Source of the DNA: Agrobacterium salinitolerans
Lineage (GTDB): Bacteria > Pseudomonadota > Alphaproteobacteria > Rhizobiales > Rhizobiaceae
Direction of reading: 5' to 3'
Assembly: GCF_002008225.1 (NCBI RefSeq)
Contig: NZ_MRDH01000006.1
Coordinates: forward strand, 124,001-188,000
DNA: 64,000 bases
Shown: in pieces, positions 12,974-29,884 of the stretch
Layout: each line of letters begins with the position of its first letter
How positions within the stretch are numbered: the first letter of the stretch is position 1
Position numbers and translations under genes: made by a program
The notes under the pieces: model-generated
What the model was told of the DNA's origin: nothing
Seen by the model: only the letters and a program-made list of their open reading frames with translations
Databases searched by the model: none

Positions 12974-13014
12974 GCCCGCAACGGCGCAAACGCGCCGGGT
13001 GCGGGCTTTGTTTG
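12974..13014 (+). terminator. Terminator after the DUF3309 gene
   Basis: Long hairpin with GCCCGCA..GGCGC and GCGCC..TGCGGGC arms and an AAAC loop, followed by TTTGTTTG. Confidence 0.85.
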
Positions 13015-13186
13015 TTCCGAAATATGCAGCGGATACGAAAAGCTTCATAATCTTAAGCGCTTAGGAGTTCGGCTGCTGTGGTGTGCCGGTCCGGCCCGAA
13101 AAAACACCACATTCGGAACGAACCCTCTTGCGCCCATAATGGATTCGTTCTAAATGCCCGCCATCGCTTGATTGATGAGCGTGTGA

Positions 13187-13260
13187 GGCCTCGTGGCGGA
13201 GTGGTGACGCAGAGGACTGCAAATCCTTGTACCCCGGTTCAATTCCGGGCGAGGCCTCCA
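13187..13260 (+). tRNA. tRNA-Cys (anticodon GCA)
   Basis: A complete 74-nucleotide tRNA: acceptor stem GGCCTCG pairs with CGAGGCC, discriminator T, encoded CCA; anticodon GCA at 13219-13221 in a CTGCAAA loop; T arm CCCCGG-TTCAATT-CCGGG. A possible promoter (TTGCGC at 13128 and TAAATG, 17-base spacer) lies upstream. Its 3' part from the anticodon loop onward is repeated at 29610-29657, so this tRNA is the integration site of the following element and stays intact. Confidence 0.97.
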
Positions 13261-13264
13261 AAAA
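13217..13264 (+). repeat. attL: 48-bp direct repeat inside tRNA-Cys
   Basis: Identical over 48 bases to 29610-29657. It starts at the base before the TGCAAA of the anticodon loop and runs five A residues past the CC of the CCA end. This copy belongs to the intact tRNA gene. Confidence 0.95.
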
Positions 13265-13389
13265 TTTCACCTTATAAAACAAGCGCTTGCAGTCGAAACT
13301 TCAATTTTTTTGTAGGGTTTCGTGTCGCGGTGTGTTGCGACCCGTTTCCCCGTGATTGCGGGCGCTTCCTTCTAGTCACGGCGAATCCA

Positions 13390-13408
13390 TGCAACATGAG
13401 TTGCGACA
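13390..13408 (+). promoter_or_regulatory. Candidate integrase arm-type site, left end
   Basis: TGCAACATGAGTTGCGACA is matched in the same orientation at 29551-29568 (TGCAACATAATTGCGACA), close to the other att repeat. Shared motifs near both element ends are expected for integrase arm-binding sites. Confidence 0.45.
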
Positions 13409-13422
13409 TGGAGAACCGCGTT

Positions 13423-13614
13423 ATGAGAGACAGAAGTGAAATATTTCACTGGAATAAGGCGGCGATTCGCCTGGCCGCCGACATAGCGAAAGAGAAGGGC
13501 GTTATCGTCAAACTCAATCGCGACGGATCAATTCACGTCACACCTTTACAAGACGATGCTGTGGAGGAGATGCGCACTTTCATTGCATCTCAAGCGTTGC
13601 CTGAGGCGTGGTGA
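13423..13614 (+). CDS. Small phage-type protein of unknown function
   Basis: A 63-residue protein starting MRDRSEIFHWNKAAIRLAAD, with a helical first half and a short KLNRDGSIHVTP beta hairpin. The ATG at 13423 has GGAG nine bases upstream; in-frame ATGs at 13396 and 13408 are less well supported. It is the first gene inside the left end of the element, downstream of the candidate arm site. It resembles the next gene in its IAKEKGVIVK / IAKQCGVIVE segment, so the two small proteins may be distant relatives. Confidence 0.6.
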   Translation: MRDRSEIFHWNKAAIRLAADIAKEKGVIVKLNRDGSIHVTPLQDDAVEEMRTFIASQALPEAW

Positions 13615-13647
13615 CTGTTCAGCGGACGAATACCTGATTGAAGCGGT

Positions 13648-14109
13648 ATGGATGTTGGAATGACAACCAAGGCGTTGGTGACGAAATCAGAGCTTCTGAG
13701 GATGGCCAAAATTGCGAAGCAGTGTGGCGTTATCGTAGAGCAAGAGTACAAGGGCGTGATCGTTCGCGTTGCGCCAATCGACGCTGGAAGCGTAAAGCCG
13801 GCGAAGACGGAGCCTCGCTGGGCACCGGCTGAAGATGCGCCGCCGCCGCCCATACAACCTCCACTGAACAGGTACGAGGAAGCGGTGATGAAGACTCTCG
13901 CAGCAATCGGACCGAACGCAAAACTGCGCTACACCCAGCTACGGTCATTTGGGCCAGCGACGGAAGAAAAACTCTTGGCGCGCGGATACATAGATGTAAT
14001 TCGACCAGCCGGGGGAAGGTTGAAGGACGAGGTCGTTTGCCTCACCGAAAAAGGTTTTGATGACTGGCAAAAGCACCGCGATCACATCAGCAGCCATCCT
14101 TACTTATAG
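13648..14109 (+). CDS. Hypothetical element protein with possible winged-helix C-terminus
   Basis: A 153-residue protein. Residues 5-50 (KALVTKSELLRMAKIAKQCG, then IVRVAPID) resemble the preceding small protein; a Pro-rich linker (PPPPIQPP near residue 67-74) joins this to a C-terminal domain of about 75 residues whose pattern (YEEAVMKTLAAIG, TEEKLLARGYIDV, VCLTEKGFDDW) looks like a winged helix. Its stop overlaps the end of the convergent gene 14104-14430 by six bases. No family recognised. Confidence 0.65.
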   Translation: MDVGMTTKALVTKSELLRMAKIAKQCGVIVEQEYKGVIVRVAPIDAGSVKPAKTEPRWAPAEDAPPPPIQPPLNRYEEAVMKTLAAIGPNAKLRYTQLRSFGPATEEKLLARGYIDVIRPAGGRLKDEVVCLTEKGFDDWQKHRDHISSHPYL

Positions 14110-14430
14110 GCTGGTGCCGTCATCCTGACACCCGCTCCGATCTCGCATCATCTTACTCGCGATGCTGTTGCCAGACCCATCGAATTTCAAATCACCGCTG
14201 TACGGCCGCCACTCGTCCTCAGAATGGCAGCAATCCTGCTCGTCGCCGTTCTGGTCAGTTTCTTCTGGTTCCCGCTCATCGTCATCTTCCCGGTCGCCCG
14301 CCGCCGGGTCACTGTCCGCCAAATAGGGTTCCATGTTCTCGTCACCGTCGAGAAGATCCAGCAGGGCAACAAGTTCCTCAATCTTGGCTTCCAAGCGAGC
14401 GCGAGTGAATTCGATCTCAGTCCGGTTCAT
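14104..14430 (-). CDS. Acidic hypothetical protein of the left operon
   Basis: A 108-residue protein with an N-terminal helix (residues 1-28, ARLEAKIEELVALLDLLDG) followed by a highly acidic, low-complexity region rich in D, E and N (about 30-80). Its start overlaps the stop of 14427-14639 (ATGA). Acidic, disordered phage proteins often act as DNA mimics or inhibitors, but nothing in this sequence proves it. Confidence 0.65.
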   Translation of the reverse strand: MNRTEIEFTRARLEAKIEELVALLDLLDGDENMEPYLADSDPAAGDREDDDEREPEETDQNGDEQDCCHSEDEWRPYSGDLKFDGSGNSIASKMMRDRSGCQDDGTSL

Positions 14431-14639
14431 GTTGCCTCCCTCCGACTTTCGGCTGCAGGGGCCACCATCGCGAACGCGGCGTTATCTGAATGCTGGATGT
14501 GAACGCGCCACGTCATGCCGTGGATCTTCTGCATCGCTTGCGCGAGCTCGGTCGCTAGGCGATCAACTTCGGAAATCAGATCCTTCCCGCCATCCAACTG
14601 GCGGGAAATGTCGGGGTGAATTGCCGCAGCGATCTTCAT
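14427..14639 (-). CDS. Small hypothetical protein of the left operon
   Basis: A 70-residue, mainly helical protein (ISEVDRLATELAQAMQKIHG) with a short beta-like MTWRVHIQHSD segment. It overlaps both neighbours by ATGA, so it is the middle gene of a translationally coupled trio. The segment LATELAQAM..W.V.I is similar in layout to the C-terminal part of the upstream gene product (LSWELSEALSRYQNGAFQAV), hinting at a shared small domain. Confidence 0.6.
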   Translation of the reverse strand: MKIAAAIHPDISRQLDGGKDLISEVDRLATELAQAMQKIHGMTWRVHIQHSDNAAFAMVAPAAESRREAT

Positions 14640-15139
14640 GCCTTTGCCCTCAGATCGAACACGCCGACCTTAGTCAGCATGACAGTGTGACCGGCCGAGG
14701 CGGAGGGCAGAACCACCGCTTGAAAAGCGCCGTTCTGATACCGGCTCAAGGCTTCGGAAAGCTCCCACGAGAGGCGCTCGACATGATCAACCGGCAATTC
14801 GTCGCGAGTTTCCCTCATAGGGAAGGAAGCAAACCCGTTAAACGAGGGCGGAATCGGAGGCATTACGTGAGCAGACCATTTCGCGTTGTCGCAGTCCGCG
14901 AGTGTGTCCGAAAGCTCTTTCATCAGACGGCGCGCCTTGGTCCACGGATGTTCCTCGGTGCCGGGAATGGTAAGCTTGGTGTAAACGCCGTGCTTGTTGG
15001 CGGTAACCTGGTCAATCATCAGATTGGGATTAGCACGGATGATTTTCCCAGCTTCTTCGAGGGTGGCGTCGAGCCGCTTCTTCGGGGATTGCGCTTCAGC
15101 GGGCATGGCTTCGCCAGCGGCCGGAATCGTATTCGGCAT
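14636..15139 (-). CDS. Hypothetical protein, first gene of the left operon
   Basis: A 167-residue protein starting MPNTIPAAGEAMPAEAQSPK, with an AAAGGGA ribosome site nine bases upstream. It contains two similar helix-strand units (about 60-95 and 120-150: LMKELSDTLADCDNAKWSAHV and LSWELSEALSRYQNGAFQAV). I recognise no family. It is divergent from the XRE regulator gene and is probably controlled by the operators between them. Confidence 0.65.
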   Translation of the reverse strand: MPNTIPAAGEAMPAEAQSPKKRLDATLEEAGKIIRANPNLMIDQVTANKHGVYTKLTIPGTEEHPWTKARRLMKELSDTLADCDNAKWSAHVMPPIPPSFNGFASFPMRETRDELPVDHVERLSWELSEALSRYQNGAFQAVVLPSASAGHTVMLTKVGVFDLRAKA

Positions 15140-15171
15140 GATACATTTCCCTTTGTTTATGAGCATTTTCT

Positions 15172-15229
15172 GTTTATACGTAAACCATAACGGTTAACCA
15201 AGGTCAACAGTAAATGTTTACGTGTAAGC
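15172..15229. promoter_or_regulatory. Divergent control region with repeated GTTTA-N4-TAA palindromes
   Basis: GTTTATACGTAAAC (15172-15185) and GTTTACGTGTAAGC (15216-15229) share the inverted half-sites GTTTA and TAAAC/TAAGC with a four-base centre; a third half-site GTTTATATA lies at 15237. They sit between the start of the leftward trio and the XRE regulator gene, the expected place for operators of that regulator. Confidence 0.55.
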
Positions 15230-15266
15230 AAAAATTGTTTATATAGAGGCATGCCAAGAGGGACTG

Positions 15267-15509
15267 ATGTTGAGAGCAAATCAAATCCGGGCCGCGCGAG
15301 CCCTGTTAAACTGGTCGCAATCGGAGCTTGTCGAGAAGTCGGGCTTATCGCTGACGACGATCCGTCGCATGGAGGACGATAAGATCGGGCCAGAAAGAAG
15401 TTCGGCTGGCAATGTCGCCACCGTGACGAGGATCATCGAAGACGCTGGCGTCACCTTCTTGAGCGACGGTGAAGTGGTCGAAGGTGGCCCAGGCGTGAGG
15501 ATGTCATGA
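15267..15509 (+). CDS. XRE-family helix-turn-helix regulator
   Basis: An 80-residue DNA-binding protein. Residues 5-40 (RAARALLNWSQSELVEKSGL followed by SLTTIRRMEDDKIGPERS) are a classic Cro/C1-type helix-turn-helix. The C-terminus, TVTRIIEDAGVTFLSDG followed by VEGGPGVRM, is the common short tail of small rhizobial XRE proteins. AGAGGGA precedes the ATG. It overlaps the next gene by ATGA, so the regulator and the membrane protein form one operon. It probably represses its own promoter and the divergent trio. Confidence 0.85.
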   Translation: MLRANQIRAARALLNWSQSELVEKSGLSLTTIRRMEDDKIGPERSSAGNVATVTRIIEDAGVTFLSDGEVVEGGPGVRMS

Positions 15510-15943
15510 ACGGACTTTGGCAAAACTCGATAGCTACCGTCGGCGTGGTTAGTGGCTTGCTTTCAATTATCGCCATGATTGCTCCTTTCCCCGTTAGAGA
15601 GAGTAGAGTCGCGATCGGTCTATACGTGATTGTCGTCGCAATTCTGGCCACGTTTGCTACTCATTTCTCAAGCCGATTGACACGGATTGAGGAAGTTTCG
15701 CGGGTAGCGGATCAGATGGTGAAGGAAAGACAAGTGAACTACACCCATCGAGCATTTGTACTCGCCAGCTTGTCCTTTTTGGAGAAGAACAAGGATCTTT
15801 TTCCGGACACCTACGACCGAGCAAAAAAGCTCTGCGAAACGTTCCGATGCGGTGATCCCGAGGCCTCGTTGGAGATGATCGAACTGTCCTATACGATGGC
15901 GGGCATTGTCAGGGGACTTGGGACAATGTCGTCATCCAAGTAA
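15506..15943 (+). CDS. Two-helix membrane protein coupled to the XRE regulator
   Basis: A 145-residue protein with two N-terminal transmembrane helices (about 8-27 and 34-53) and a soluble helical domain of 90 residues rich in charged positions. No known family. Because it overlaps the regulator gene by ATGA, its level is tied to that of the repressor. Possible roles are superinfection exclusion or a membrane toxin controlled by the repressor; both are inference. Confidence 0.65.
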   Translation: MNGLWQNSIATVGVVSGLLSIIAMIAPFPVRESRVAIGLYVIVVAILATFATHFSSRLTRIEEVSRVADQMVKERQVNYTHRAFVLASLSFLEKNKDLFPDTYDRAKKLCETFRCGDPEASLEMIELSYTMAGIVRGLGTMSSSK

Positions 15944-15995
15944 GCGGTAGTGAGAAACCCGCTTGTCGCTACCAGTTGACCCCGGAGGTTATCTA

Positions 15996-16301
15996 ATGGG
16001 CGTGCGTAGAACGCCGACGTTTCCGCCTGACACTTGGCCGCCGAGGATGATGGCCGACATGGCAGCTGCTTATTGTGGCGAGCGTCACGTCGAAGATTTT
16101 CTCGAGCGGGTAGGTACCTCTTATCCGCAGCCGCGAGTCATCGAGACTGCTCGGCGCAAGTTTTGGTATCGTGTCGATTTGGACCGAGCCATGAGCATCG
16201 GTGCTGCTGAATCTGGTCCTAGTATGGGAGCGATTTTCCGCGCGAAGATGCAGGAGAAGAAGCGTTCGGCGGCGAAAGCAAAGCTGAACGACGAGGTCTG
16301 A
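15996..16301 (+). CDS. Excisionase-like winged-helix protein
   Basis: A 101-residue protein. The segment TWPPRMMADMAAAYCGERHV, then EDFLERVGTSYPQPRV and KFWYRVDLDRAM, follows the layout of a winged-helix excisionase or AlpA-type DNA-binding domain that is frequent in rhizobial prophages. A perfect GGAGG lies seven bases before the ATG at 15996; a TTG 33 bases upstream in the same frame is less likely. It lies next to the second recombinase gene and could be its recombination directionality factor. Confidence 0.6.
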   Translation: MGVRRTPTFPPDTWPPRMMADMAAAYCGERHVEDFLERVGTSYPQPRVIETARRKFWYRVDLDRAMSIGAAESGPSMGAIFRAKMQEKKRSAAKAKLNDEV

Positions 16302-16321
16302 CGCCATCTTTCAGGGTGTTC

Positions 16322-16364
16322 GCATGACACGAATACCTCTGCACGTGCATGACACACATACCTC
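16322..16364 (+). repeat. Two 18-bp direct repeats upstream of the second recombinase
   Basis: GCATGACACGAATACCTC (16322-16339) and GCATGACACACATACCTC (16347-16364) differ at two positions and are 25 bases apart. They lie 76-118 bases before the recombinase start, a likely place for recombinase binding or operator sites. Confidence 0.55.
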
Positions 16365-16439
16365 GGGGCACCTGCACCATACAGGCACCCGAGCCCCAAA
16401 ATGTGCCGGTGGGGCACGCTATGAAAAGGAGAGCATTGA

Positions 16440-17417
16440 ATGTCCGCATTGACGTTGATCTCCTCACAGCCGGGAATAGAGGCTGTCTCCGATCTCTCTG
16501 TCTCCGATCTCTCTGACGCTGCGCTCGACTACGGCCGCGCTGCGCTATCCAGCAACACCATGCGGGCCTACAGAAGCGACTGGCAGGATTTTCAGGACTG
16601 GTGTGCGGCTCGCGACCGATCGCATCAGCCGGCCACCCCTGCGACCGTGGCCAACTATGCATCGTCTCTGGCCGAGGCTGGGAAGAAGGTGCCCACAATC
16701 GCCCGCAAGTTGGCCGCCATTCGCTTCTTTCACCGCGGCGCTGGCCTGGATAACCCGACCGATAATGCGGGCGTGGCGGCCATCCTGAAGGGCATACGCC
16801 GCACAGTGGGCACAGCGGCCCGCCAGAAGGCTCCAGCAACGGTTGACGTCATTCATGCCATGATGGCGCGGATCAACGCTGACAGCCTCCAGGGCAAGCG
16901 TGATAGGGCATTGCTGTTGCTTGGCTTCGCTGGCGCCTTCCGTCGATCGGAGCTTGTGGCTATCACTGTCGAGGATCTGACGTTCAGCGAAGAAGGCGTG
17001 GACGTGTTCTTGCCGAAATCGAAGACCGACCAGGAGGCGAAGGGCCAGTCGGTAGCCATCCTGAACGGCAAGGCTCTGAAACCCGCTGACAGGCTCAAGG
17101 AGTGGCTTCAGGCGGCGGGGATAAGCTCGGGCCCTATCTTCCGCCGCTTCAATCGGGGTGACCGCCTGACGGCCGAGACGCTGACGGATCAAGCCGTGGC
17201 GCTGATCGTGAAGAAATATGCCGACGCGGCCGGCCTCGATGTGGCGAGCCTATCCGGTCACTCGCTGCGCGCTGGCTTTGTTACCTCGGCGGCAGAGAAC
17301 CGGGCGAGCATATCGCGCATCATGGAAGTGACCCGGCATCGCGACCCGCGCACCGTGGAAACCTATGTGCGCCGAGCGGACCGGTTCAAGGATCATGCGG
17401 GGGATGGGTTCCTATGA
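16440..17417 (+). CDS. Second tyrosine recombinase (XerC/D-like, short form)
   Basis: A 325-residue tyrosine recombinase with SAM-like core-binding domain (about 25-125) and catalytic domain. The catalytic set is complete: R168 (GAFRRSEL), H274 and R277 (GHSLRAGF), H300 and nucleophile Y309 (TYVRRAD). It lacks the arm-binding domain of phage integrases, like cassette- or Xer-type recombinases. A 15-bp in-frame duplication near the start repeats VSDLS (16485-16514). The ribosome site AAGGAGAG is strong. It overlaps the PIN-domain gene by four bases. The element already has its own integrase at the right end, so this one probably moved with the cargo cassette. Confidence 0.9.
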
Positions 17418-18001
17418 AGACGTTCACCTTTGATACAAACTGCTTGATTGCCCTGTCCGACGAAACCCGCTCTGAACATGGTGACGTTCTGAAGCTCGTG
17501 GAGGCCAGCAAGAAAGGCCTGATCAGCGTTGCCATGGTGGCGTCCAGCGCCGCAGAGCGGCAGTTGTCGGGCGAATACCTCGGCAACATCGCAGGATTCA
17601 AGCAGAGGATGGCCGATCTGAACTTAGACCACGTCGAGCTTCTGCGGCCAATCGGTACCTACGGCATGACATTCCATGATCATGCTATCTATCCAGATGA
17701 TGCGCAGATGGCATTGCAAACGCAGATATTCGAGACCCTTTTTCCAACCACCCCAGCTAGTTGGCCGGATCATGCCGCTGATCTCGGCCAGAGCACCGAA
17801 GATACTGAAACACCAGCCGGCGTAAAGTGGCGGAACAAATTCCTCGACGCCCAAGGGATGTGGGGGCATATCAACTACGGTCGAGACGTCTTCGTCACGT
17901 CCGATGCAAACTTTGCCCGCCGCTTCAAGGCCCGCGAGGAGTTCAAGCGTGTCGTCATCGCGACCCCAAGCGAGGCCGTCGAGATGTTGACCACTGCATG
18001 A
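17414..18001 (+). CDS. PIN-domain protein coupled to the recombinase
   Basis: A 195-residue protein with PIN-type ribonuclease features: strand-acid start [11 protein letters not shown] with D7, an acidic residue in the second helix ([10 protein letters not shown] near 48), and the C-terminal [12 protein letters not shown] with D164, the position where PIN nucleases keep their last metal-binding acids. The sequence between is longer than in VapC toxins and holds an unrecognised insertion (about 80-150). Its ATG overlaps the recombinase stop (ATGA). No antitoxin-sized gene is adjacent, so it is not a standard VapBC pair. Confidence 0.75.
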
Positions 18002-18016
18002 AAACCTTGGAGAAAA

Positions 18017-18034
18017 CGTCCGGAACTCCGGACG
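18017..18034 (+). terminator. Possible terminator after the PIN gene
   Basis: Perfect CGTCCGGA / TCCGGACG palindrome 15 bases after the stop. No T run follows, so it may instead be a protein-binding site. Confidence 0.35.
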
Positions 18035-18153
18035 AATTTCGCACTCCGCCAAACTCCAAATTTCTGCCATTTGCTGCCAATTGGCTGAGCCCATATGTTG
18101 ACATTTGTTGACGGCTTGCTCGCGATAAGGGTGATTATCGATAGCAAGTTGGA

Positions 18154-18507
18154 TCAAGATTCCGGAAGTTCCGCAGCCGTTGGCGGAACTATGGAGTACC
18201 AGTTGAACTGAAAGACGGCTTCTCTGTCTGCATTGAGGTCGGCAGAGAGTATTAAACCGGTGCCAGGCAATCCCGTTTTCTTGTTCACGACAAGAACGGT
18301 GAGGGGTGGGAGCCCGTTTTCGTCACACCAGTACATCAGGTGCCCGAGTTGCCTATCCAAAACGCCAGACCCCTTATAGCCTAGGCGGTCTGCGACCATC
18401 TGGTACGTTAGAATCTCTCGGCGATGGGCTGCGCCAATTAGAATTAGGTAGATTTGTACCGCTCTGGTTCTGGTCGTGGAATTGGTAGCAAAATACGAAA
18501 TCGGCAC
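18154..18507 (-). CDS. Small protein with alkyltransferase-like layout
   Basis: A 117-residue protein. I chose the GTG at 18507 because AGAGGA stands seven bases upstream; a TTG at 18555 would add 16 residues. The central part, EILTYQMVADRLGYKGSG, then VLDRQLGHLMYWCDENGLPP and LTVLVVNKKTGLPGTGL, follows the order of the C-terminal domain of O6-alkylguanine-DNA alkyltransferases and their ATL relatives (winged helix, then PPL..VV....G.PG.G), but the PCHRV cysteine motif is not present. It could therefore be a DNA-lesion or modified-base binding protein. It sits in the cargo cassette beside a nuclease. Confidence 0.65.
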   Translation of the reverse strand: MPISYFATNSTTRTRAVQIYLILIGAAHRREILTYQMVADRLGYKGSGVLDRQLGHLMYWCDENGLPPLTVLVVNKKTGLPGTGLILSADLNADREAVFQFNWYSIVPPTAAELPES

Positions 18508-18568
18508 TATCGAATCCTCTAGTTGTCCTGAGACGTCATGCGGGCCTAACTGCAAGAGGCCAGGGCGG

Positions 18569-19093
18569 TTAAAGCGAGCGCAGATCCTTCACGAGCCTTC
18601 TCCCAAGAACAGCTGTTTCTAACCACAGATCAATTTCGCCGCGTATTACGCGGGCTACGCCTTCTGGGCCCAGATCGTCATATGCCCCTACCTGCATATC
18701 GGCTACCGTTGTTCTAATACCAATCACACGGGTGTAGAACTTCGCAAGCGGGCCGGTGATTTGCCCAAGCGTGCCAATATTCCCCATGTTTGCTGTGAAA
18801 ATCGGGAAAGGGTCTCTCGCTTGCTCTTGATCAGAAAGCCAGCCCTCCACTTTGGGGATCGTGCCTTCGGTAGCTTGCTTGAATAGCATTTCAGCGACCG
18901 GGACCCAGCCTCGGTGATCGACAATGTCTATGTAGGCCTCAATTTCAGCAGCTATGGCGAAAGCGATTGACTGGCGACGGTGGGTAATTTCATGGCGACG
19001 CTGAAGGTGTTGGCCGAACAACGCGGCGCCGGCACCGATCAAGGCACCAACAAAGCCAGTAACGGCAGGTAGCACCTGCAGCCAAACACTCAT
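18569..19093 (-). CDS. Membrane-anchored protein of the cargo cassette
   Basis: A 174-residue protein with one N-terminal transmembrane helix (about 6-28, TGFVGALIGAGAALFGQHLQ) followed by a basic stop-transfer segment and a helical cytoplasmic domain (AFAIAAEIEAYIDIVDHRGW). The start at 19093 has GGAG six bases upstream; a TTG at 19105 is less likely. This N-anchor plus helical domain design is common for unnamed proteins near restriction and defence genes. Same direction as the nuclease gene upstream and the alkyltransferase-like gene downstream, so the three are probably one operon. Confidence 0.65.
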   Translation of the reverse strand: MSVWLQVLPAVTGFVGALIGAGAALFGQHLQRRHEITHRRQSIAFAIAAEIEAYIDIVDHRGWVPVAEMLFKQATEGTIPKVEGWLSDQEQARDPFPIFTANMGNIGTLGQITGPLAKFYTRVIGIRTTVADMQVGAYDDLGPEGVARVIRGEIDLWLETAVLGRRLVKDLRSL

Positions 19094-19138
19094 TACGTTC
19101 TCCAAGATTACGCGTGCCAGGTGGTGTCTGTCAGACCC

Positions 19139-20191
19139 TTAATCGATGTACTTCTTTGCCGTCGCTCTGAGCCTGTCAGAATGCTCATAGATTTGATCAA
19201 GGCTGTCGATGATGAGCCGCTCTTCCGCCTCACCATCGAAGAGGCCAATGTATTTGATCGATCGATTGAAGTGTAAGCGTGCCAGGGGCTTACGGTTATT
19301 GTTGTCGATCAATACGCCGCAATAGGATTTCTGGTCGCGCATGACCACGCGGGCAGGACTTATGGTATCTCGCACGATTGCTTTCACAATCATGTAGCCT
19401 TCCCGTTCTTCTTCCGTCGTGACGATTTCCGGCTCGTCTTCCACAGGAGCGTCGATCTTCTCGATGACTTCTTCCGTGTCCGCCAGGGCGCTGGAGAGCC
19501 TGCTCTTAACGGTGTCCATAATCACTTCGCGAAACGCGGTCCTAACCACGCCGGTAAGCATTTCTCGTACCTGAGCCGTCATCCGGCCCTCATAGACTCC
19601 AGCAGACACGATCCGCACAAATTCCTCGGAGGGCTCTTCAATCAGCTTGGAAATGACCTGCTTGATTCCCGAGGTGTATTTGAGACGCTCGGCCGTTGCG
19701 AGTATGGCATCCACGTCGAAGGCGGACTTCTCAAACTTCCTAAGCTCGGTGACGATGCCCGCATTGAAATCGGTCACATCGAAGACAAAGAAGGGACGGG
19801 TATCGAGTTTATTTGGCGCTTCCAGATCCGTGTAGAAATTGAAGGTTCGCCCGTTCGTCAAGATGGCGAATTTCGCATTCGTAACGCTAAAATAGCGGTA
19901 CAGTTGATCGAGATGCTTTTTATCCAGAGCCACTGATATGGGTTTGCACTCGATCAGTATGCGCACCTCGTTGTCGATCTTGATCGCGTAATCGACCTTT
20001 TCACCCTTTTTGCCCACAGCATCCGCAGTGAACTCGGGAACAACTTCGGAGGGGTCGAAAACATCATAGCCAAGCGATCGCAAGAAAGGCAACACGACGG
20101 CGGTCTTGACCGCTTCCTCGGTGGCCATCGTGCTGGAATGCGATTTCACCCGCTCAGCGATTGCGCGCAAGCTTTCTTCGATCGTGCTCAT
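19139..20191 (-). CDS. HsdR N-terminal type (PD-(D/E)xK) nuclease-like protein
   Basis: A 350-residue protein. Its first 150 residues match the stand-alone version of the type I restriction enzyme R-protein N-terminal domain: TEEAVKTAVVLPFLRSLGYD, then KVDYAIKID and RILIECKP, giving the nuclease triad D67, E81, K83. The region after 150 is helical, and the last 80 residues (residues 270-350, ARVVMRDQKSYCGVLIDNNN and following) form a separate beta-rich domain. No helicase or methyltransferase partner is present. GGGGGAACAC before the ATG at 20191 supports this start. It is the first gene of a leftward three-gene cargo operon and the strongest sign of a defence role. Confidence 0.8.
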   Translation of the reverse strand: MSTIEESLRAIAERVKSHSSTMATEEAVKTAVVLPFLRSLGYDVFDPSEVVPEFTADAVGKKGEKVDYAIKIDNEVRILIECKPISVALDKKHLDQLYRYFSVTNAKFAILTNGRTFNFYTDLEAPNKLDTRPFFVFDVTDFNAGIVTELRKFEKSAFDVDAILATAERLKYTSGIKQVISKLIEEPSEEFVRIVSAGVYEGRMTAQVREMLTGVVRTAFREVIMDTVKSRLSSALADTEEVIEKIDAPVEDEPEIVTTEEEREGYMIVKAIVRDTISPARVVMRDQKSYCGVLIDNNNRKPLARLHFNRSIKYIGLFDGEAEERLIIDSLDQIYEHSDRLRATAKKYID

Positions 20192-20225
20192 GTGTTCCCC
20201 CTGCCGAGCCATAATCAAAGTAAAG

Positions 20226-20286
20226 TTGCTTAACAGATTGATTCCGTCAATCTGGCGTTGTCATCAATTTCACGACTTGCTTAACA
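20226..20286 (+). repeat. 10-bp direct repeat flanking the cassette/phage junction
   Basis: TTGCTTAACA occurs at 20226-20235 and 20277-20286. Between them GATTGA-N5-TCAATC forms a hairpin. This is exactly where the cargo operon meets the 5'-truncated phage gene, so it may mark an old recombination point or the nuclease promoter. Confidence 0.4.
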
Positions 20287-20289
20287 AGG

Positions 20290-21141
20290 GCAGGGCTGAC
20301 TGGTAGCGATAACGGTCATTCTCACGATGAAAAGCTGAAGCGCGTTGCGACGGCAATCGATCGCCTTGCAGCCGGTGAGACACCCGAACAGATCAAGGCC
20401 GGGCCGCGGCCTGAATACGATCCGACGCCGGCGGAGAAGGAAGCCATAGCTGAGTTTATGGAACTTCCGGAAGGCCTGCCGCAATACATTAAGGTGCCTG
20501 ATCTGCCGCAGATGTTGAGGTTTCAGCACCCCCGGCAAGAGGTCGCGTTGGCGGTCGTCATGAAGGCTCTAGGGATCACCGATCAACGTCTATATACCTC
20601 GATGATCTCACAGATCACTAATGCGCTCTCGCGCGGGGAGGAAGCGGAAGTTGCTGAATTGAATGCTGCCATTGCTCTGGTGGCCGGCATCGAGCCCAGA
20701 GACCACCTTGAGGCAATGCTGGCCTTCCAAATGGCCACGGTGCATGTCCTGTCTCTCCGTCACACCAGATCGCTTGTCACCGCTGATCGCGTCGATCTCC
20801 TGGACCTGCATGAGCGTATCGTCAACAAGCTGATGCGGACATTCACAAGCCAGATGGAGGCCCTGCGAAAGCATCGCAATGGCGGCAATCAAAAGGTCGT
20901 TGTCGAGCACGTTTATGTTGGCGAAGGCGGTCAGGCGATCATCGGCAATGTCACCCACGGGGGGCGGGGTAGAAACAAAAAAGGTGCACAATCCCATGGA
21001 CAAGAAGATTTATCCTTACCAGCTCGCGCCGCGGTGCTCGGCCATGTCGAAGCGGACAAAGTGCCAGTGCCAGGCGCCAGCGGAACGCGGGAAGATGGTT
21101 TGCCGGTTCCACGGAGCGCGCGCCGGAGCGCCAAAGGGTAG
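20290..21141 (+). pseudogene. 5'-truncated phage protein gene
   Basis: The frame is open from 20242 and reads as credible protein from about 20299 (KLKRVATAIDRLAAGETPEQ, then IKAGPRPEYDPTPAEKEAIA), but there is no ATG, GTG or TTG until 20458. The protein from that ATG is 227 residues, helical, with the segment KHRNGGNQKVVVEHVYVGEG then GQAIIGNV that I recognise from many alphaproteobacterial phage proteins encoded next to a HGG-APKG protein. So the gene has lost its 5' end at the junction with the cargo cassette. A shortened protein from 20458 may still be made. It overlaps the next gene by about 145 bases. Confidence 0.65.
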
Positions 21142-21265
21142 CAAGAACGGTGCATATAAGCATGGTCGGTTCACCTGCGAAATGATCGAAATCCGCAAGG
21201 AGATTGCCGAGATAGGGCGTCAGCATCGCGACATGATGGCGCTTCTTTCCGGTGGCGGCCGGTAG
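20996..21265 (+). CDS. Cys/His-containing phage protein (HG.R.GAPKG family)
   Basis: An 89-residue protein starting MDKKIYPYQLAPRCSA. Cysteines and the CRFHG motif (a Cys/His cluster at residues 14-40) are followed by ARAGAPKGSKNGAYKHGRFT and a helix. This pattern is a frequent small protein in alphaproteobacterial prophages, found just after the gene it overlaps here. Probably zinc- and nucleic-acid-binding; function unknown. Confidence 0.7.
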   Translation: MDKKIYPYQLAPRCSAMSKRTKCQCQAPAERGKMVCRFHGARAGAPKGSKNGAYKHGRFTCEMIEIRKEIAEIGRQHRDMMALLSGGGR

Positions 21266-21370
21266 CACCTTATCAACACAATTCAACACACAAATTGATG
21301 TTGTTGCGCAAACCTATCATCATCTGTTATATATTCGCCAGCGACCACGGATGAACTGGCGCAAAGGATT

Positions 21371-21402
21371 GGCCGGCCTTCCGAGGTGACGGCCTTTCTT
21401 TT
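21371..21402 (+). terminator. Possible terminator in the 21266-21417 gap
   Basis: GGCCG and CGGCC arms, 14-base loop, followed by TTTCTTTTT. The rest of the gap shows AT-rich repeats of CAACACA but no gene. Confidence 0.4.
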
Positions 21403-21417
21403 TGCCTGGAGCACCAG

Positions 21418-21840
21418 ATGATTACCGAGATCGAGATTGAAGACGTTGGCATGCTTCGTCCCATGAACGCTTTCCAGCTTCACCGAGCCATGAGGATCAA
21501 GGATCGGGGCAATCGTGCTATCGCATTTGCAGCCTTCGGACTCGGCTTGAGTGTCCAGCAATTCAAGAAACTGCCTACACAAAAGCAGCGTGAAATCTGG
21601 GATGCTCATAGCCGCCTCATATCGCCCGCTTCAAGCGCGCCAAGGCGTGAGCGCAGTGAACATGCTTCCAACCCGCCAAAGCCATATACGAGACTGTCAG
21701 AGGCGCAGAAAGCCTACTACGGTAAACAGCTTATCGACATGAAGGCTTCGTTGCCTCGCGGTCATTTCGGTCCATGGCTACGTGAAAAGAGTGGGCTGAC
21801 TGTTAGCCAAGCTCAACGGTATATGCGAATGGCGAGGTGA
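21418..21840 (+). CDS. DUF3102-like phage protein (C-terminal motif)
   Basis: A 140-residue protein. The last 35 residues, LPRGHFGPWLREKSGLTVSQ then AQRYMRMAR, match the (L/H)G.F..W....G.S..TAQRYMR motif of DUF3102 and related phage replication-region proteins; the same motif occurs in the gene at 25821-26333, so the element has two relatives of this domain. The N-terminal half is unrecognised. Confidence 0.65.
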   Translation: MITEIEIEDVGMLRPMNAFQLHRAMRIKDRGNRAIAFAAFGLGLSVQQFKKLPTQKQREIWDAHSRLISPASSAPRRERSEHASNPPKPYTRLSEAQKAYYGKQLIDMKASLPRGHFGPWLREKSGLTVSQAQRYMRMAR

Positions 21841-21903
21841 ATCCCGTTGACAGGCACAACCTGTGATGATGAAAATTCAAGCTTGCGGCTTGGAGGGATA
21901 TGC

Positions 21904-22404
21904 ATGCGCAAATGGGTTCTATCAGCAGTGTTTTTCGTTTCGATCACTGCTCCTGCAATGGCGGGTTTTCAGCAATGGTCAGTGGACACAGAGGACGATC
22001 CTTTCTCTGGCGGTAAGCGTGTAACCGTCGATTTTATGAGCTCCCTTCGGTCGGGCGTGATCGTAATATGTGACACCGCCGAGAAGGGACTTATGTTCCG
22101 AGCAATACCTGGCTTCGCATTCGATACGCGGCTTCAGGGGCTTACTCCCGAGATAGAATTCGCGATCGACGGGGTAAGACTTCTTGGGCAGACCGGAGAG
22201 ACAGGGGCAGTCGGGGATAACTTGGCCGCCGCCCAAGTGATGCTGACGAAAGAGAACGCAGAATCTCTCGTCGCAGCGTTCGCCACTGCCAAGAAGCAGA
22301 TTGCGATTAAGGATGGCATCAGCGACAGACCGCATCTGTTGACTGCCAGAGGATCAACGAAAGCAGGTGCCTCGTTGCTCACTTGTATGAAATTGCAGAA
22401 GTGA
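21904..22404 (+). CDS. Secreted protein of unknown function
   Basis: A 166-residue precursor with a signal peptide (MRKWVLSAVFFVSITAPAMA, cut expected before GFQQW). The mature protein is about 146 residues with two cysteines (ICDT near 60 and LTCM near the end) that could form a disulfide, and mostly beta-like segments. GGAGGGATATGC precedes the ATG. It resembles in style small periplasmic proteins carried by rhizobial prophages; I know no function. It is a possible lysogenic-conversion gene. Confidence 0.6.
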   Translation: MRKWVLSAVFFVSITAPAMAGFQQWSVDTEDDPFSGGKRVTVDFMSSLRSGVIVICDTAEKGLMFRAIPGFAFDTRLQGLTPEIEFAIDGVRLLGQTGETGAVGDNLAAAQVMLTKENAESLVAAFATAKKQIAIKDGISDRPHLLTARGSTKAGASLLTCMKLQK

Positions 22405-22454
22405 AGCCGCAGCACCTTGAAGCTTCGAAGGATCGGTAGCGAGAAGACCAGTTA

Positions 22455-23261
22455 TCAATACCGATCGCGGTGCCAGGAGCCGTTCAGATCGGCCACCATC
22501 TGGTCGTAAGCCGCCATGGACTTTGCCTCGTCGTCGGTAACCTTCGGGGTGCCTACATCCGCGCCGTCGAGGATGGCGAAATACCTTTCCGCCGGCATTC
22601 CAGAGGTCACCACGCCGCGCACGCCATCATAGAGCGGCAGGGCTGCAGCCTGGTCGAGCGGCATGCCTTTCACGCTGTCTTTCATCGTTTGGCGTTCGGC
22701 ATCGGTCATCGCCTGAGGTTCCTTCCGGTTGGCACCGTCACCAATGCGCAGTTCAGAGCCGCCACGCGCGGCCGGGACAACGGCGATATGGTTGCTGCGG
22801 ATACCGCGCTGAATCGCGTCGTAGGCCTCGCCAGAGGGCGATACGCCAGCCGTCCAGTCGAGATCACAGGTGTAGCCCATGGAGAGCTCTCTGGTGCCGT
22901 CCTCGATCTCTCTGATAGTGCCGGCGTCGGCCAGCAGCATGGACACGCGGACAAACTCGCCATCGCGCGCCACTTCGCCGTCGCTCCAGCCCTTTGCCAC
23001 GTCTTTCCAGTTGTTGGCCGACACAGCCTGATTAGGATGCCCCAGCGTCACCGGACGGTGAGCGAAGCTCTGCATCGTGTCGCTGCTAAAAACCTCGTCA
23101 GCGGGCCGGAAAACGCGAACCACGGGCATCTCCGGCTTGCCCACCTCTGAGCCCGCGTAAAGCTGCACATTGTTCGCCCGGGCGACCTTGGCATTGACCG
23201 TGAGATATCCGTCGCGAGTGCGGTGCTGGCCGTCGATCGTCAATTTGTCCTGAAGGTGCAT
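22455..23261 (-). CDS. DUF2213 phage head-maturation type protein
   Basis: A 268-residue protein. It begins with RTRDGYLTVNAKVARANNVQ and contains FRPADEVFSSDTMQSFAHRP, VTLGHPN and ELSMGYTCDLDW, the pattern of DUF2213, a putative prohead protease and scaffold found beside portal and capsid genes. The C-terminus ends with AAYDQMVADLNGSW. Here no portal or capsid gene is adjacent. It is the last gene of a leftward trio (24670 to 22455), separated by about 100 bases from the gene upstream. Confidence 0.75.
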   Translation of the reverse strand: MHLQDKLTIDGQHRTRDGYLTVNAKVARANNVQLYAGSEVGKPEMPVVRVFRPADEVFSSDTMQSFAHRPVTLGHPNQAVSANNWKDVAKGWSDGEVARDGEFVRVSMLLADAGTIREIEDGTRELSMGYTCDLDWTAGVSPSGEAYDAIQRGIRSNHIAVVPAARGGSELRIGDGANRKEPQAMTDAERQTMKDSVKGMPLDQAAALPLYDGVRGVVTSGMPAERYFAILDGADVGTPKVTDDEAKSMAAYDQMVADLNGSWHRDRY

Positions 23262-23360
23262 GTTCAGTTCCTTTCAAGTTGAGCGGTGGCGGGAAGCCCT
23301 CGGGCGGAGACAACCCATCTTCCCGCCACCTCATGCCGACGGTTACCAGTCGCGGGCATA

Positions 23361-24035
23361 TCAATTCTCCGGTGGTTGTTTGTGGGCGTCACGAAGGCGT
23401 TGGACAGAATCCTGATAGGCCTTTTCGGCCGCATCCTTCGGATCATTCCGCCTGATGCCATCGGCCATCACGACCGCAAACGGATCGGTGTTTACGCGCG
23501 CTGCGAGGAGGTCAAAGCGCTCATCGATGTAGGCTTCAGTCTTGCCATCCACAGCGCCGTCACCGCATCGGCGGCGAACGACTTCCCGTTTCACATCGAG
23601 CGCGCTCGCGAAATTGTCAGCGTCAAAAGCGGGGTAGATTTTTTTGGCGATGTCTTTCGTGTCGACAAGGGCAAGCGCGCGACGATGAATTTCACCATCC
23701 TGATCCTGCAGCTTCGCCTTCTTGCTTTCGATTTCGCGATTGATTGCGGCGATCTGGGCGTCTTTCTGCGCGATATCAGCGATATGTCGTTTCCGGGCGT
23801 CCTCGATCTCAGCTTCGATAAGCGCTGCCTCGTCTTCCATAGCCTTGACGAAATATGCCACGTCAGCGTCAGTGAGCAGCTTCAGCGGCTCTTCCTTTCG
23901 GTCGGCCACCGGCTGGCGGTGCCCACGCTGGAGAGCGGCCCAATCCTTGACGAACTCGGCAACCTTTGCCTCAACGCCATCGCTCAGACCGACGCGCTGA
24001 TGAGTGCCATCTTCTTTCTTGCGGTTGAAAAGCAT
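23361..24035 (-). CDS. Coiled-coil protein with a DUF2213-like tail
   Basis: A 224-residue protein starting MLFNRKKEDGTHQRVGLSDG. Residues 65-125 are a charged coiled coil (ALIEAEIEDARKRHIADIAQ). The last 75 residues, REVVRRRCGDGAVDGKTEAY then IDERFDLLAARV and DAAEKAYQDSVQRLRDA, resemble the C-terminal tail of DUF2213 proteins. Together with the downstream DUF2213 gene it may represent a split scaffold/protease unit. Ribosome site GAGGAACC. The start at 24035 is preferred over an in-frame start at 24071 that would overlap the upstream gene. Confidence 0.65.
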   Translation of the reverse strand: MLFNRKKEDGTHQRVGLSDGVEAKVAEFVKDWAALQRGHRQPVADRKEEPLKLLTDADVAYFVKAMEDEAALIEAEIEDARKRHIADIAQKDAQIAAINREIESKKAKLQDQDGEIHRRALALVDTKDIAKKIYPAFDADNFASALDVKREVVRRRCGDGAVDGKTEAYIDERFDLLAARVNTDPFAVVMADGIRRNDPKDAAEKAYQDSVQRLRDAHKQPPEN

Positions 24036-24049
24036 TATGCGGTTCCTCG

Positions 24050-27650: not shown

Positions 27651-28373
27651 ATGAGCAAAAAGCCAGTGATCCAGCCCCAAGACAAATACGTGTTACGAAT
27701 GCCTGATGGTCTGCGCGATAGAATAAAAGCGTACGCCGAAAGACACGGGCGAAGCATGAATGCAGAGATTATCCGAGTTTTGGAGCGAGAGTTTCCGGAG
27801 CAGTGGCCAGTCGATGACCGCTTAATAGAACTTGCAAAAATGCTGAATGTCTTGAGTGCGGGCCGTGGTGATCCTCGGCTTGACGGCTTTATCGATCGGT
27901 TCAAGGAGACCGTGGACGGAATTGTCTCCGGACGAGTGACGGGCGTAGATGCGGAAACAAGGGAGTCTGTCAGAGAACTGTGGGCTGCATACAAGGCCGA
28001 AGCTGACGAAGCAGCGCACGAAGCCTTCAAAGACTCTCAGATGGATTACAGTGACGATGAGTTGGAAGCTCACGAGCTCACAGGGAACTATGAAAAGTAC
28101 GCCGTCCCGCCACCCAAACGGCCGCATCCTGTAGGGGACAGCTTCTATTTGATGGATATCATTCCGCGTGGTCCTCTGTCGGAAATAGCCGAGCGATTGA
28201 GTTCCGGCGACACCGAAGGTGCGGCGGATATCATGCGAAAGATACCAAAGCGCCAAATAGAGGAGCGTTTGAAATTTCACGCATTGTCAAAGTTCGAACA
28301 GGATGAACTTCGCAGTAACCCGGATGCGGGGGCTCCAGAAGAAAATTACGACCCGTTTAAACTCTCGGAGTGA
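27651..28373 (+). CDS. Arc-type ribbon-helix-helix regulator with long C-terminal extension
   Basis: A 240-residue protein. Residues 10-50 (DKYVLRMPDGLRDRIKAYAE, RHGRSMNAEIIRVLEREFPE) are an Arc/MetJ-type ribbon-helix-helix DNA-binding domain, close in pattern to P22 Arc. The next 190 residues are an unrecognised, mainly helical extension, far longer than Arc (53 residues) or Mnt. No Shine-Dalgarno precedes the ATG, which abuts the third operator, so the mRNA is probably leaderless and self-repressed. Only three bases separate it from the integrase gene, so it likely controls integration as well as the divergent early operon. Confidence 0.85.
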   Translation: MSKKPVIQPQDKYVLRMPDGLRDRIKAYAERHGRSMNAEIIRVLEREFPEQWPVDDRLIELAKMLNVLSAGRGDPRLDGFIDRFKETVDGIVSGRVTGVDAETRESVRELWAAYKAEADEAAHEAFKDSQMDYSDDELEAHELTGNYEKYAVPPPKRPHPVGDSFYLMDIIPRGPLSEIAERLSSGDTEGAADIMRKIPKRQIEERLKFHALSKFEQDELRSNPDAGAPEENYDPFKLSE

Positions 28374-28376
28374 GGC

Positions 28377-29549
28377 ATGAGTGTACGCAAGCGCGAATGG
28401 ACAACTCCAAAAGGCGATGCGAAGAGCGCTTGGGTAGTCGACTACTTCGACACTGCCGGGAAGCGCCGGCTGAAAACATTCAAGCTAAAAAAGGAAGCCG
28501 ACCGGTTCGCCGCGACGGCCTCTGTGGAGGTCAGGGAAGGCGTTCACGTCGCTGACAGTGCAAGTGTGACTGTCGAGAAGGCTGGCGCGCTGTGGATCGC
28601 CTCGGGCGAAAGCGCGGGGCTTGAGCGCTCATCGATGGATCAGCGCAAAAGCCACCTGAAGCACCACATCAATCCATTGATTGGCCAGACGCTGTTGTCG
28701 CGCCTCAATGTTCCGGCCGTCAGGGACTTCGAAGACACGATGAGGCAGAACGGCCGATCGCCAGCAATGGTGAAGAAGGTTCTGACCTCGCTCGGCTCGA
28801 TCCTGTCTGATGCGAATGAGCGTGGCCTGGCAACGCGAAATCCAATCCGGGACATCCGATCCAGCCGTAAGGGCCGTGACAGGCGGCAGGAGAAGCGCCA
28901 GAAGGGCAAGCTTGTCGTGGGCGTGGACATACCCACCAGAAGCGAGATTAAGGCGCTCGTGGCCGCTCTGGACGGCAACTGGAGGCCGTTGCTTGTGACG
29001 GCAATCTTCACGGGTATGCGTTCCTCAGAATTGAGGGGCCTGCGGTGGCAGGACGTTAATTTCAAAAAGGCAGAGATCCACGTCAATCAGCGCGCCGACC
29101 AGTTTAAGGAAATCGGCCCGACAAAGTCAGAGGCCGGCGTAAGAACGATCCCTGTGCCCCCTGTCGTCATCGCAGCGCTGAAGGAACATAAGCTCCGCCA
29201 GCCGCCGGGCTTCGAACTAGTCTTTGCCAATCCAGACGGTGAACCTCGGTCACATGCGAACATCGTCAACAAAGGCCTGAAACCAGCGATGATTCGAGCT
29301 GGTGTGACTGTGGGTGAGGGGGATGCCATCGAGGCGAAATATACTGGCCTCCACGCGCTGCGCCACTTCTACGCCTCTTGGCTTATCAACCGAAAGGAAG
29401 ATGGCGGCTTAGGTCTCCCGGTCAAAATGGTGCAGGAGCGCATGGGGCATTCCTCGATCGTGATGACAATGGACACCTACGGGCACCTATTTCCGCGGCT
29501 GGATGATGGGACAGAACTAGCACAAGCCGCGAACATTTTGCTCGATTGA
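28377..29549 (+). CDS. int: Phage-type tyrosine integrase of the element
   Basis: A 390-residue integrase with N-terminal arm-binding domain (about 1-60, WVVDYFDTAGKRRLKTFKLK), SAM-like core-binding domain (65-165) and catalytic domain. Catalytic residues: R215 (TGMRSSELRG), K in TKSEAGVRTIPV, H326 and R329 (HALRHF), H358 (MGHSS) and nucleophile Y368 (TYGHLF). It lies 60 bases from the attR repeat, reading towards it, and follows the Arc-like regulator by three bases. It should catalyse integration at tRNA-Cys. Confidence 0.95.
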   Translation: MSVRKREWTTPKGDAKSAWVVDYFDTAGKRRLKTFKLKKEADRFAATASVEVREGVHVADSASVTVEKAGALWIASGESAGLERSSMDQRKSHLKHHINPLIGQTLLSRLNVPAVRDFEDTMRQNGRSPAMVKKVLTSLGSILSDANERGLATRNPIRDIRSSRKGRDRRQEKRQKGKLVVGVDIPTRSEIKALVAALDGNWRPLLVTAIFTGMRSSELRGLRWQDVNFKKAEIHVNQRADQFKEIGPTKSEAGVRTIPVPPVVIAALKEHKLRQPPGFELVFANPDGEPRSHANIVNKGLKPAMIRAGVTVGEGDAIEAKYTGLHALRHFYASWLINRKEDGGLGLPVKMVQERMGHSSIVMTMDTYGHLFPRLDDGTELAQAANILLD

Positions 29550-29609: not shown

Positions 29610-29657
29610 CTGCAAATCCTTGTACCCCGGTTCAATTCCGGGCGAGGCCTCCAAAAA
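29610..29657 (+). repeat. attR: 48-bp copy of the tRNA-Cys 3' end
   Basis: Perfect copy of 13217-13264. The sequence before it (GGGTGAAAGC) does not continue the tRNA, so this is only the 3' part and is not a functional tRNA gene. Confidence 0.95.
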
Positions 29658-29884
29658 ATTCCACGAACACAATGTTTTCGGTATTTGTGCCCCGCTTCGC
29701 GGTAATTTGCTGTTCCGGAAAACTCCACTGTTTCGCTTTTTCCCGCACATCCTGCTCAGCGCGCTTGAAAGCGTGCGCTTGGGCAATTATGAGATTATCC
29801 AAAGGCGAGGGTGAGCCCCTGCCATTTTGAGCTTTTGGAGCCGAGGCTTCCCGACCGGCATCCTTGAAATTGAGGCGAGACGAT

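What the first reader, a model, noticed from the sequence alone, without database searches (positions are those of the whole stretch)
16302..20289. Cargo cassette combining a second recombinase, PIN protein, alkyltransferase-like protein, membrane protein and HsdR-N nuclease
Seen: five genes in two facing units, between an excisionase-like gene and a phage gene that has lost its 5' end, with its own complete tyrosine recombinase. Known: stand-alone HsdR-N nucleases and PIN proteins are frequent in anti-phage islands. Inferred: a self-moving defence cassette; the nuclease, the anchored protein and the possible DNA-lesion binder (operon 20191-18154) could be one system that senses modified or damaged phage DNA. 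I know of no described system with this gene set.
Basis: partly seen in the sequence, partly recalled or inferred. Interest (0 to 1): 0.72.

Follow-up and report, generated by a model that had tools for sequence, protein, structure and literature searches.

The report
Patchwork of stray phage defence genes
A bacterial mobile element carries three neighbouring genes that look like one anti-virus system, but elsewhere each was found alone; the smallest belongs to a family with relatives joined to DNA-cutting enzymes, which suggests it reads altered DNA.

Summary

In 297 genomes of the order the nuclease, membrane and ATL-like genes were found in 9, 1 and 5 and met only in the window's own genome. 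At DNA level, 8 of 38 other genus genomes carry one of the three, none two. Each also occurs singly in viral contigs.

"Self-moving cassette" is not supported: the recombinase resembles plasmid and Cre-type ones, and no flanking repeat of 18 nt or more was found.

The ATL guess is supported (0 of 200 column shuffles score as well; solved alkyltransferases lead modest structural matches), but the PCHR/PWHR site is missing. Relatives include an HNH fusion, an Mrr neighbour and, more weakly, McrB-like proteins. I read it as an undescribed modified- or damaged-DNA reading module of type IV-like restriction.

The nuclease looks horizontally moved (pS 0.80-0.90; recA 0.23-0.42), yet its protein barely changes (pN 0.023-0.078).

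The parts
13187..13260 (+). tRNA-Cys, left end (attachment gene) of the element
   Evidence: ARAGORN
13217..13268 (+). left copy of the 52-nt repeat (tRNA-Cys 3' part)
   Evidence: the repeat finder D1, 98% identical to 29610-29661, spacing 16393
15963..16301 (+). small phage-type protein just left of the cassette (reader: excisionase-like)
   Evidence: ORF; only PHROG_25900 E 0.017
16322..16364 (+). two 18-nt direct repeats (16 of 18 alike), possible recombinase site
   Evidence: 0 of 200 dinucleotide shuffles reach 16/18
16440..17417 (+). tyrosine recombinase, plasmid/Cre-like
   Evidence: Pfam; plasmid relatives up to 54% over 91% of the protein; phages best 36%, Cre 26%; contexts
17414..18001 (+). 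PIN-like protein (unproven)
   Evidence: no Pfam hit; relatives 37-46% in Ensifer and in G435 beside homologues of other genes of this element
18017..18034 (-). terminator-like hairpin after the minus-strand unit
18154..18507 (-). 117-aa alkyltransferase-like (ATL-like) protein without PCHR/PWHR motif
18569..19093 (-). 174-aa protein with one hydrophobic N-terminal stretch; phage accessory gene ('moron')
   Evidence: relatives lie on the opposite strand beside HNH- and terminase-looking genes in L007-L009, L030, L031 (labels are my reading, HNH of L030 confirmed by Pfam)
19139..20191 (-). 350-aa stand-alone HsdR-N nuclease, PHROG 4225, intact D67-(13)-E81-x-K83 and Q96xxxY100
20285..20304 (.). 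right border of the inserted material
20305..21141 (+). phage gene lacking its 5' end
27651..28373 (+). Arc-type ribbon-helix-helix protein beside the element's integrase
   Evidence: Pfam
28377..29549 (+). the element's own tyrosine integrase
   Evidence: Pfam
29610..29661 (+). right copy of the tRNA-Cys repeat

Best explanation
The cassette is an accessory patch of a 16.4-kb integrated element, assembled from genes that elsewhere travel singly. SHOWN by sequence: each of the three minus-strand genes occurs without the others elsewhere; HsdR-N has an intact nuclease site and is under very strong purifying selection; the ATL-like domain has relatives joined to or beside restriction nucleases. 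INFERRED: HsdR-N is made while the element is resident, as in phages where it follows the repressor gene, and cuts incoming DNA (superinfection control); the membrane protein is a separate lysogen-expressed gene; the ATL-like protein binds DNA through an AGT-type helix-turn-helix and reads modified or damaged bases, acting as a stand-alone version of a type IV restriction specificity module. It has no nuclease of its own, so it would either lend specificity to a nuclease in trans (HsdR-N is the only candidate next to it) or mask or flag DNA by itself. The recombinase most likely resolves multimers or recombines at the repeats beside it, as on plasmids, rather than moving the cassette. Confidence by step: patchwork of independent genes 0.85; HsdR-N a nuclease against incoming DNA 0.6; ATL-like protein a reader of altered DNA tied to restriction 0.5; HsdR-N and ATL-like protein working as a pair here 0.12.
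Confidence: 0.6

Rival explanations
1. One three-gene anti-phage system: a membrane-anchored partner places the HsdR-N nuclease at the injection site and the ATL-like protein supplies recognition of altered DNA.
For: Co-directional genes with short gaps and a terminator-like hairpin; a membrane-bound nuclease that cuts phage DNA during injection is known (SNIPE, PMC13190303; passages seen); a relative of the ATL-like domain is fused to an HNH nuclease.
Against: No second genome with two of the three genes in 38 other genus genomes at DNA level or in 296 other order genomes; membrane gene present without the others in L007-L009, L030, L031 (L007 looked at again, whose output was cut for the rest); HsdR-N occurs without the others in phages.
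Confidence: 0.12
2. HsdR-N is not a defence gene but a mobile household nuclease (repair or recombination), which would explain recA-like constraint; the neighbours are passengers.
For: Protein change far below that of the membrane gene (HsdR-N pN 0.023-0.078 at pS 0.80-0.90, membrane gene pN 0.122-0.177 at pS 0.72-0.85); copies outside recognisable phage regions in 5 genus genomes, in three different neighbourhoods (L027 and L028 share one, L024 and L026 share neighbours, L025 stands apart).
Against: Patchy presence: 6 of 39 genus and 9 of 297 order genomes; 375 related stretches in viral contigs, often behind a repressor.
Confidence: 0.2
3. The ATL-like protein is a DNA-repair or anti-restriction factor: like ATL it flags bulky lesions for excision repair, or it shields the element's own altered DNA from restriction.
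For: ATL proteins bind O6-alkylguanine and contact UvrA/UvrC, and ATL-EndoV fusions exist in archaea (PMC10779285, passages); plasmid and viral habitat suits a protective role.
Against: PCHR/PWHR site absent; the recognisable fusion or neighbour partners are HNH and Mrr/McrB proteins rather than repair enzymes.
Confidence: 0.2
4. The 4-kb segment is a mobile cassette moved by its own recombinase.
For: Complete recombinase with paired 18-nt repeats beside it; sharp right border inside a phage gene.
Against: No flanking repeat of 18 nt or more and no second copy in 39 genus genomes; recombinase relatives up to 54% on small plasmids, in one of three opened contexts beside ParA, RHH and DUF3102 genes, and Cre among its phage relatives. 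Chromosomes outside the genus were not searched with it.
Confidence: 0.1

Closest known systems
PHROG 4225 'endonuclease' (phage stand-alone HsdR-N nuclease)
   Same: Match over residues 11-358 of the 359-residue ORF, E 4.3e-112; same active site; same kind of habitat
   Different: Here detached from repressor and integrase and placed with two unrelated genes
O6-alkylguanine alkyltransferases and ATL proteins (Pfam PF01035; S. pombe ATL 3gx4; E. coli ATL)
   Same: AGT-type helix-turn-helix region by profile and best structural neighbours
   Different: No PF01035 hit; PPLT where PCHR/PWHR would be expected (placement inferred); no lesion binding shown
ATL-EndoV and AGT-EndoV fusions of archaea (PMC10779285, passages)
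   Same: Alkyltransferase-type domain joined to a nuclease
   Different: Repair enzymes; here the partner nucleases are HNH, Mrr-adjacent and McrB-type
EVE-HNH, wH-HNH and McrBC modification-dependent (type IV) restriction (PMC7897488 abstract start in a listing; PMC11037411, PMC7641849, PMC11090510 passages)
   Same: Small specificity module used with HNH, Mrr or McrB effectors
   Different: Different module: unrelated by profile to the DpnI_C winged helix; no EVE, RAMA or DpnI_C match in the ten proteins scanned
SNIPE membrane-bound GIY-YIG nuclease (PMC13190303, passages)
   Same: Membrane anchor plus nuclease as an idea
   Different: One protein with DUF4041 and GIY-YIG; here separate proteins that do not co-occur
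Plasmid resolvases and Cre of P1-type phage-plasmids
   Same: Recombinase 16440-17417: 54% to a Methylobacterium plasmid protein, 26% to Cre; paired repeats just upstream
   Different: Sits in an integrated element that has another integrase; no resolution shown

Membership tests
Alkyltransferase / ATL family (PF01035) | Sequence or profile similarity to the AGT DNA-binding domain | tested here: met
   hhalign A5-A4 probability 69.6%, score 31.9; 0 of 200 column shuffles, reversed 12.5, DpnI_C 8.5; narrower alignments 25.1 and 28.1. But no direct PF01035 hit at E 0.1
Alkyltransferase / ATL family (PF01035) | AGT C-domain fold | tested here: inconclusive
Alkyltransferase / ATL family (PF01035) | P-C/W-H-R active-site motif | tested here: not met
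   Motif absent from the window protein and all 17 rows of A5; the 10 AGT rows of A4 all have PCHR
Type IV (modification-dependent) restriction | Specificity module joined to, or encoded with, a nuclease | tested here: inconclusive
   True of some relatives (HNH fusion, Mrr neighbour, McrB-type); in the window the nuclease next door is not a constant partner
Type IV (modification-dependent) restriction | Cuts modified but not plain DNA | not testable with these tools
   needs enzyme assays
PHROG 4225 HsdR-N nuclease | Full-length match and PD-(D/E)XK site | tested here: met
   4.3e-112; D67, E81, K83, Q96, Y100 in 31 of 31
Type I restriction-modification | HsdR helicase, HsdM and HsdS present | tested here: not met
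   no helicase, methylase or specificity subunit among the 20 proteins of 13648-29549 scanned with Pfam; smaller ORFs of the element were not scanned
A conserved three-gene defence system | Genes co-occur in unrelated genomes | tested here: not met
   1 of 297 order genomes (the own one) has more than one (cut-offs 1e-3, 1e-30, 1e-8); 0 of 38 other genus genomes at DNA level
Recombinase-borne mobile cassette | Flanking recombination sites and a second location or empty site | tested here: inconclusive
   no flanking repeat of 18 nt or more; no other copy in 39 genus genomes; short cores not excluded
VapC-type PIN toxin | PIN family match, conserved acidic residues, neighbouring antitoxin | tested here: inconclusive
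   NCBIfam VapC E 0.033 below cut-off; two acidic residues differ in one of two relatives, L005; gene overlaps the recombinase, no antitoxin gene recognised

The most novel reading that the evidence does not exclude
The 117-residue protein represents an undescribed alkyltransferase-derived reader of modified or damaged bases that bacteria and their phages plug into several restriction effectors (HNH, Mrr, McrB-type, probably PD-(D/E)XK), as EVE and winged-helix modules are used; in this element it serves in trans as the specificity subunit of a stand-alone HsdR-N nuclease.
Probability: 0.3. Interest if true: 0.78.

Novelty: new variant of a known kind. Interest (0 to 1): 0.46.

Why it matters
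If the ATL-like family reads altered DNA, alkyltransferase-type domains would join EVE, SRA, winged-helix and McrB N-domains as specificity modules of modification-dependent restriction. That would link a DNA-repair fold to immunity against modified phage genomes and offer new readers for DNA modification mapping. The finding also shows how a row of genes can look like one defence system although its parts travel separately, and it puts forward a mobile nuclease constrained like recA whose function can be tested directly.

Tried and rejected
Rejected: one system (no co-occurrence); self-moving cassette; a possible ATL-like gene after the membrane gene in L007 (DNA similarity stops at the end of the membrane gene); the ATL-profile hit in L192 at E 0.0025 (that ORF reads to me as a RuvC-like nuclease); DpnI-type winged helix for the ATL-like domain. 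Not informative: megablast of 13000-25000 against phages and plasmids found only the tRNA stretch; PADLOC gave only HTH models and, for HsdR-N, a type IIG model (2.1e-8) and weak hits; no solved-structure relatives by sequence for HsdR-N (E 0.01) or the ATL-like protein (E 1), and only xylose isomerase at E 0.07 for the PIN-like one; PIN-like and phage-gene scans of viral contigs found nothing; the scan of viral contigs with the single ATL-like sequence found nothing while the profile found three, so pattern scans miss relatives. The tblastn of the membrane protein against plasmids found nothing. A regular-expression count of integrases near viral HsdR-N genes was too strict to use (2 of 80). 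Promoter scan: 1 site, 2.0 expected. A second AlphaFold job (HsdR-N, alignment A7) never got a place. Paper searches (capped search listings: 20 of 50, 6 of 6, 1 of 1, 15 of 19, 10 of 50, 8 of 255, 8 of 11 papers shown) showed no description of this ATL-like family or of the gene set; word searches inside PMC7641849, PMC11090510, PMC13190303, PMC11037411 and PMC12707154 found no 'alkyltransferase', and in PMC10779285 'restriction' and 'phage' do not occur. Subscription papers are not in that library, so 'undescribed' holds only for these searches.
Full report
Where it lies. The window is from a 4,986,140-base genome (G000, contig 37). tRNA-Cys at 13187-13260 and a 52-nt repeat of its 3' part at 29610-29661 (98%, spacing 16,393) bound an element with an Arc-type regulator and its own tyrosine integrase at 27651-29549. 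The cassette of the finding lies inside this element.

The five genes. All are present at the stated places. The recombinase (16440-17417) has Pfam integrase and SAM-like domains. The PIN-like gene (17414-18001) overlaps it by 4 nt; no family model passes. The minus-strand unit is HsdR-N 19139-20191, a protein with one hydrophobic N-terminal stretch 18569-19093 (read from the letters; no topology program was available), and the ATL-like protein 18154-18507, with gaps of 45 and 61 nt and a perfect 8-bp hairpin with T run behind it. The right border lies between 20284 and 20304: HsdR-N DNA similarity in three genus genomes ends at 20284, and the interrupted phage gene resembles its relative in G036 from 20305 on, that relative having ten more residues and a start codon.

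Do the three minus-strand genes belong together? In 39 genus genomes, eight besides G000 matched the cassette DNA, each with one gene: HsdR-N in G001, G003, G019, G026 and G030, the membrane gene in G014 and G031, and a frame-shifted ATL-like gene in G018. In 297 genomes of the order the ATL-like gene was found in 5 (E 1e-3), HsdR-N in 9 (E 1e-30) and the membrane gene in 1 (E 1e-8); only G000 is in more than one list. The cut-offs differ, so weaker relatives of HsdR-N and of the membrane gene were not counted. Of 80 viral loci with HsdR-N (the best 80 of 375 stretches) none has the membrane gene within the stored flank (at most 4 kb), and the one ATL-profile hit is judged spurious. The plasmid, viral and genus relatives of the membrane and ATL-like genes carry neither of the other two in the stretches read.

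What each gene is elsewhere. HsdR-N: 375 related stretches in viral contigs and 18 phage records. Of five phage regions opened, four have it between repressor and integrase and one between head and tail genes. Of 49 non-redundant viral loci 48 had an upstream ORF, 36 on the same strand; these 48 most often match repressor or regulator families (phrog_4 11 of 48, phrog_8 10, phrog_2328 9; overlaps possible). The membrane gene stands on the opposite strand beside HNH- and terminase-looking genes (L030, L007-L009) or terminase-looking genes (L031; labels are my reading, the HNH of L030 is confirmed by Pfam): a typical place for a lysogen-expressed accessory gene. The ATL-like gene occurs on Enterobacter, Nostoc and Deinococcus plasmids and, in two of three viral contigs, inside what read as structural regions (L103, L105).

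HsdR-N evolves oddly. For the same five genome pairs the nuclease has pS 0.80-0.90 (saturated) where recA has 0.23-0.42, and yet pN is 0.023-0.078 and protein identity 87-96% (recA pN 0.004-0.041). The membrane gene shows pN 0.122-0.177. In L027 and L028, which share flanks of 85-91% DNA identity in the nearer segments, the nuclease segment is only 76% identical (pS 0.89). Both facts point to horizontal movement. The five copies lie in three neighbourhoods: L027/L028 share one, L024/L026 share a nearby gene, L025 stands apart. D67, E81, K83, Q96 and Y100 are unchanged in 31 of 31 sequences. recA as the only control gene is a thin base; more genes should be compared.

What its family is joined to. 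Profile A3, built from six close single-domain members, was run over 5,917 ORFs of all loci then held, with no hit in the reversed set; those loci had been pre-selected by earlier searches, so E-values should be read with that in mind. Hits: a 263-residue fusion with HNH_2 (L106, E 1.7e-23; Pfam); two 439-472-residue proteins with unassigned remainders (L064, L107; about 1e-9); a gene directly before Mrr (L065, 6.2e-9); a gene before an OLD/UvrD pair as in Gabija (L118, 1e-21; the Gabija label is mine); 285-300-residue proteins whose C-terminal part looks to me like PD-(D/E)XK but passes no Pfam cut-off (L063, L113, L120; L121 and L122 only by profile A1); and McrB-type AAA proteins (L108 0.0021, L110 0.23, L111 only by A1), L108 being followed by a McrBC-family gene. 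With A1, 26 of 398 phylum genomes have a match, the own one included. Not all are defensive: L112 sits beside the sigma factor gene.

Recombinase and PIN-like gene. In the plasmid collection the best full-length recombinase relatives are on plasmids of Methylobacterium (54%), Acetobacter, Komagataeibacter and others; two records with higher-identity partial matches were not listed. In one of three opened contexts the gene follows ParA, RHH and DUF3102 genes. The genus has 39%-identical ones in two genomes. In phages 31 records match, best 36%, and Cre of P1-type phages at 26% is among them. Chromosomes outside the genus were not searched. Two 18-nt repeats (16 of 18) lie 76-118 nt before the gene, 0 of 200 shuffles as good, a plausible site. 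Together this suggests a resolvase rather than a cassette integrase. The PIN-like gene has relatives in Ensifer and in G435, there beside homologues of 14104, 14636 and 15267 of this element, so it may be an old part of such elements.

Comparison with the literature (search listings and passages only). Swappable reading modules in type IV enzymes are known: EVE (PMC7897488 abstract start, PMC7641849 passages), winged helix (PMC11037411 passages), McrB N-domains (PMC11090510 passages). Alkyltransferase-type domains joined to endonuclease V are known as repair enzymes (PMC10779285 passages). None of the papers seen describes the family here, and seven capped searches showed none.

Verdict. Observation confirmed; the one-system and self-moving readings are not supported; the ATL guess is largely right and leads to a modular family worth testing.

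Noticed in passing
window 19139-20191; L024-L028: Apparently mobile nuclease with saturated synonymous change but recA-like protein conservation; a household role cannot be excluded.
   Followed up: partly
window 13187-29661: The whole 16.4-kb element is bounded by tRNA-Cys and a 52-nt repeat and has its own integrase; among the genes scanned only a few are recognisably phage (e.g. a DUF2213 protein at 22455-23261).
   Followed up: partly
window 21418-21840 and 25821-26468; L126 4214-4897: Two genes with DUF3102 similarity in the element (the first below Pfam's cut-off); a DUF3102 gene also directly precedes the plasmid recombinase in Methylobacterium sp. FF17.
   Followed up: no
L118 7260-11437: ATL-like gene followed by an OLD-type ATPase/TOPRIM gene and a UvrD helicase gene, a Gabija-like pair.
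   Followed up: no
L107 6813-8231; L064 6969-8288: Fusions of 440-470 residues with the ATL-like domain in front and a remainder that no Pfam model recognises.
   Followed up: no
L120, L121, L122, L113, L063: Proteins of about 300 residues with the domain in front and a PD-(D/E)XK-looking end; in L122 the next gene is an N6/N4 DNA methylase.
   Followed up: no
L061 1-5752 and L060 (G435): A related element with the PIN-like gene (split over two contig ends) and homologues of 14104, 14636 and 15267, but no recombinase found in the corresponding interval.
   Followed up: no
L056 8572-8865 (G036): Relic of the interrupted phage gene in what reads as a glycosyltransferase gene cluster, with an intact start.
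   Followed up: no
L055 2015-2839: ORF with an HNH-looking motif (no Pfam match) just before an ATL-like gene in a Nitrospirales contig.
   Followed up: no
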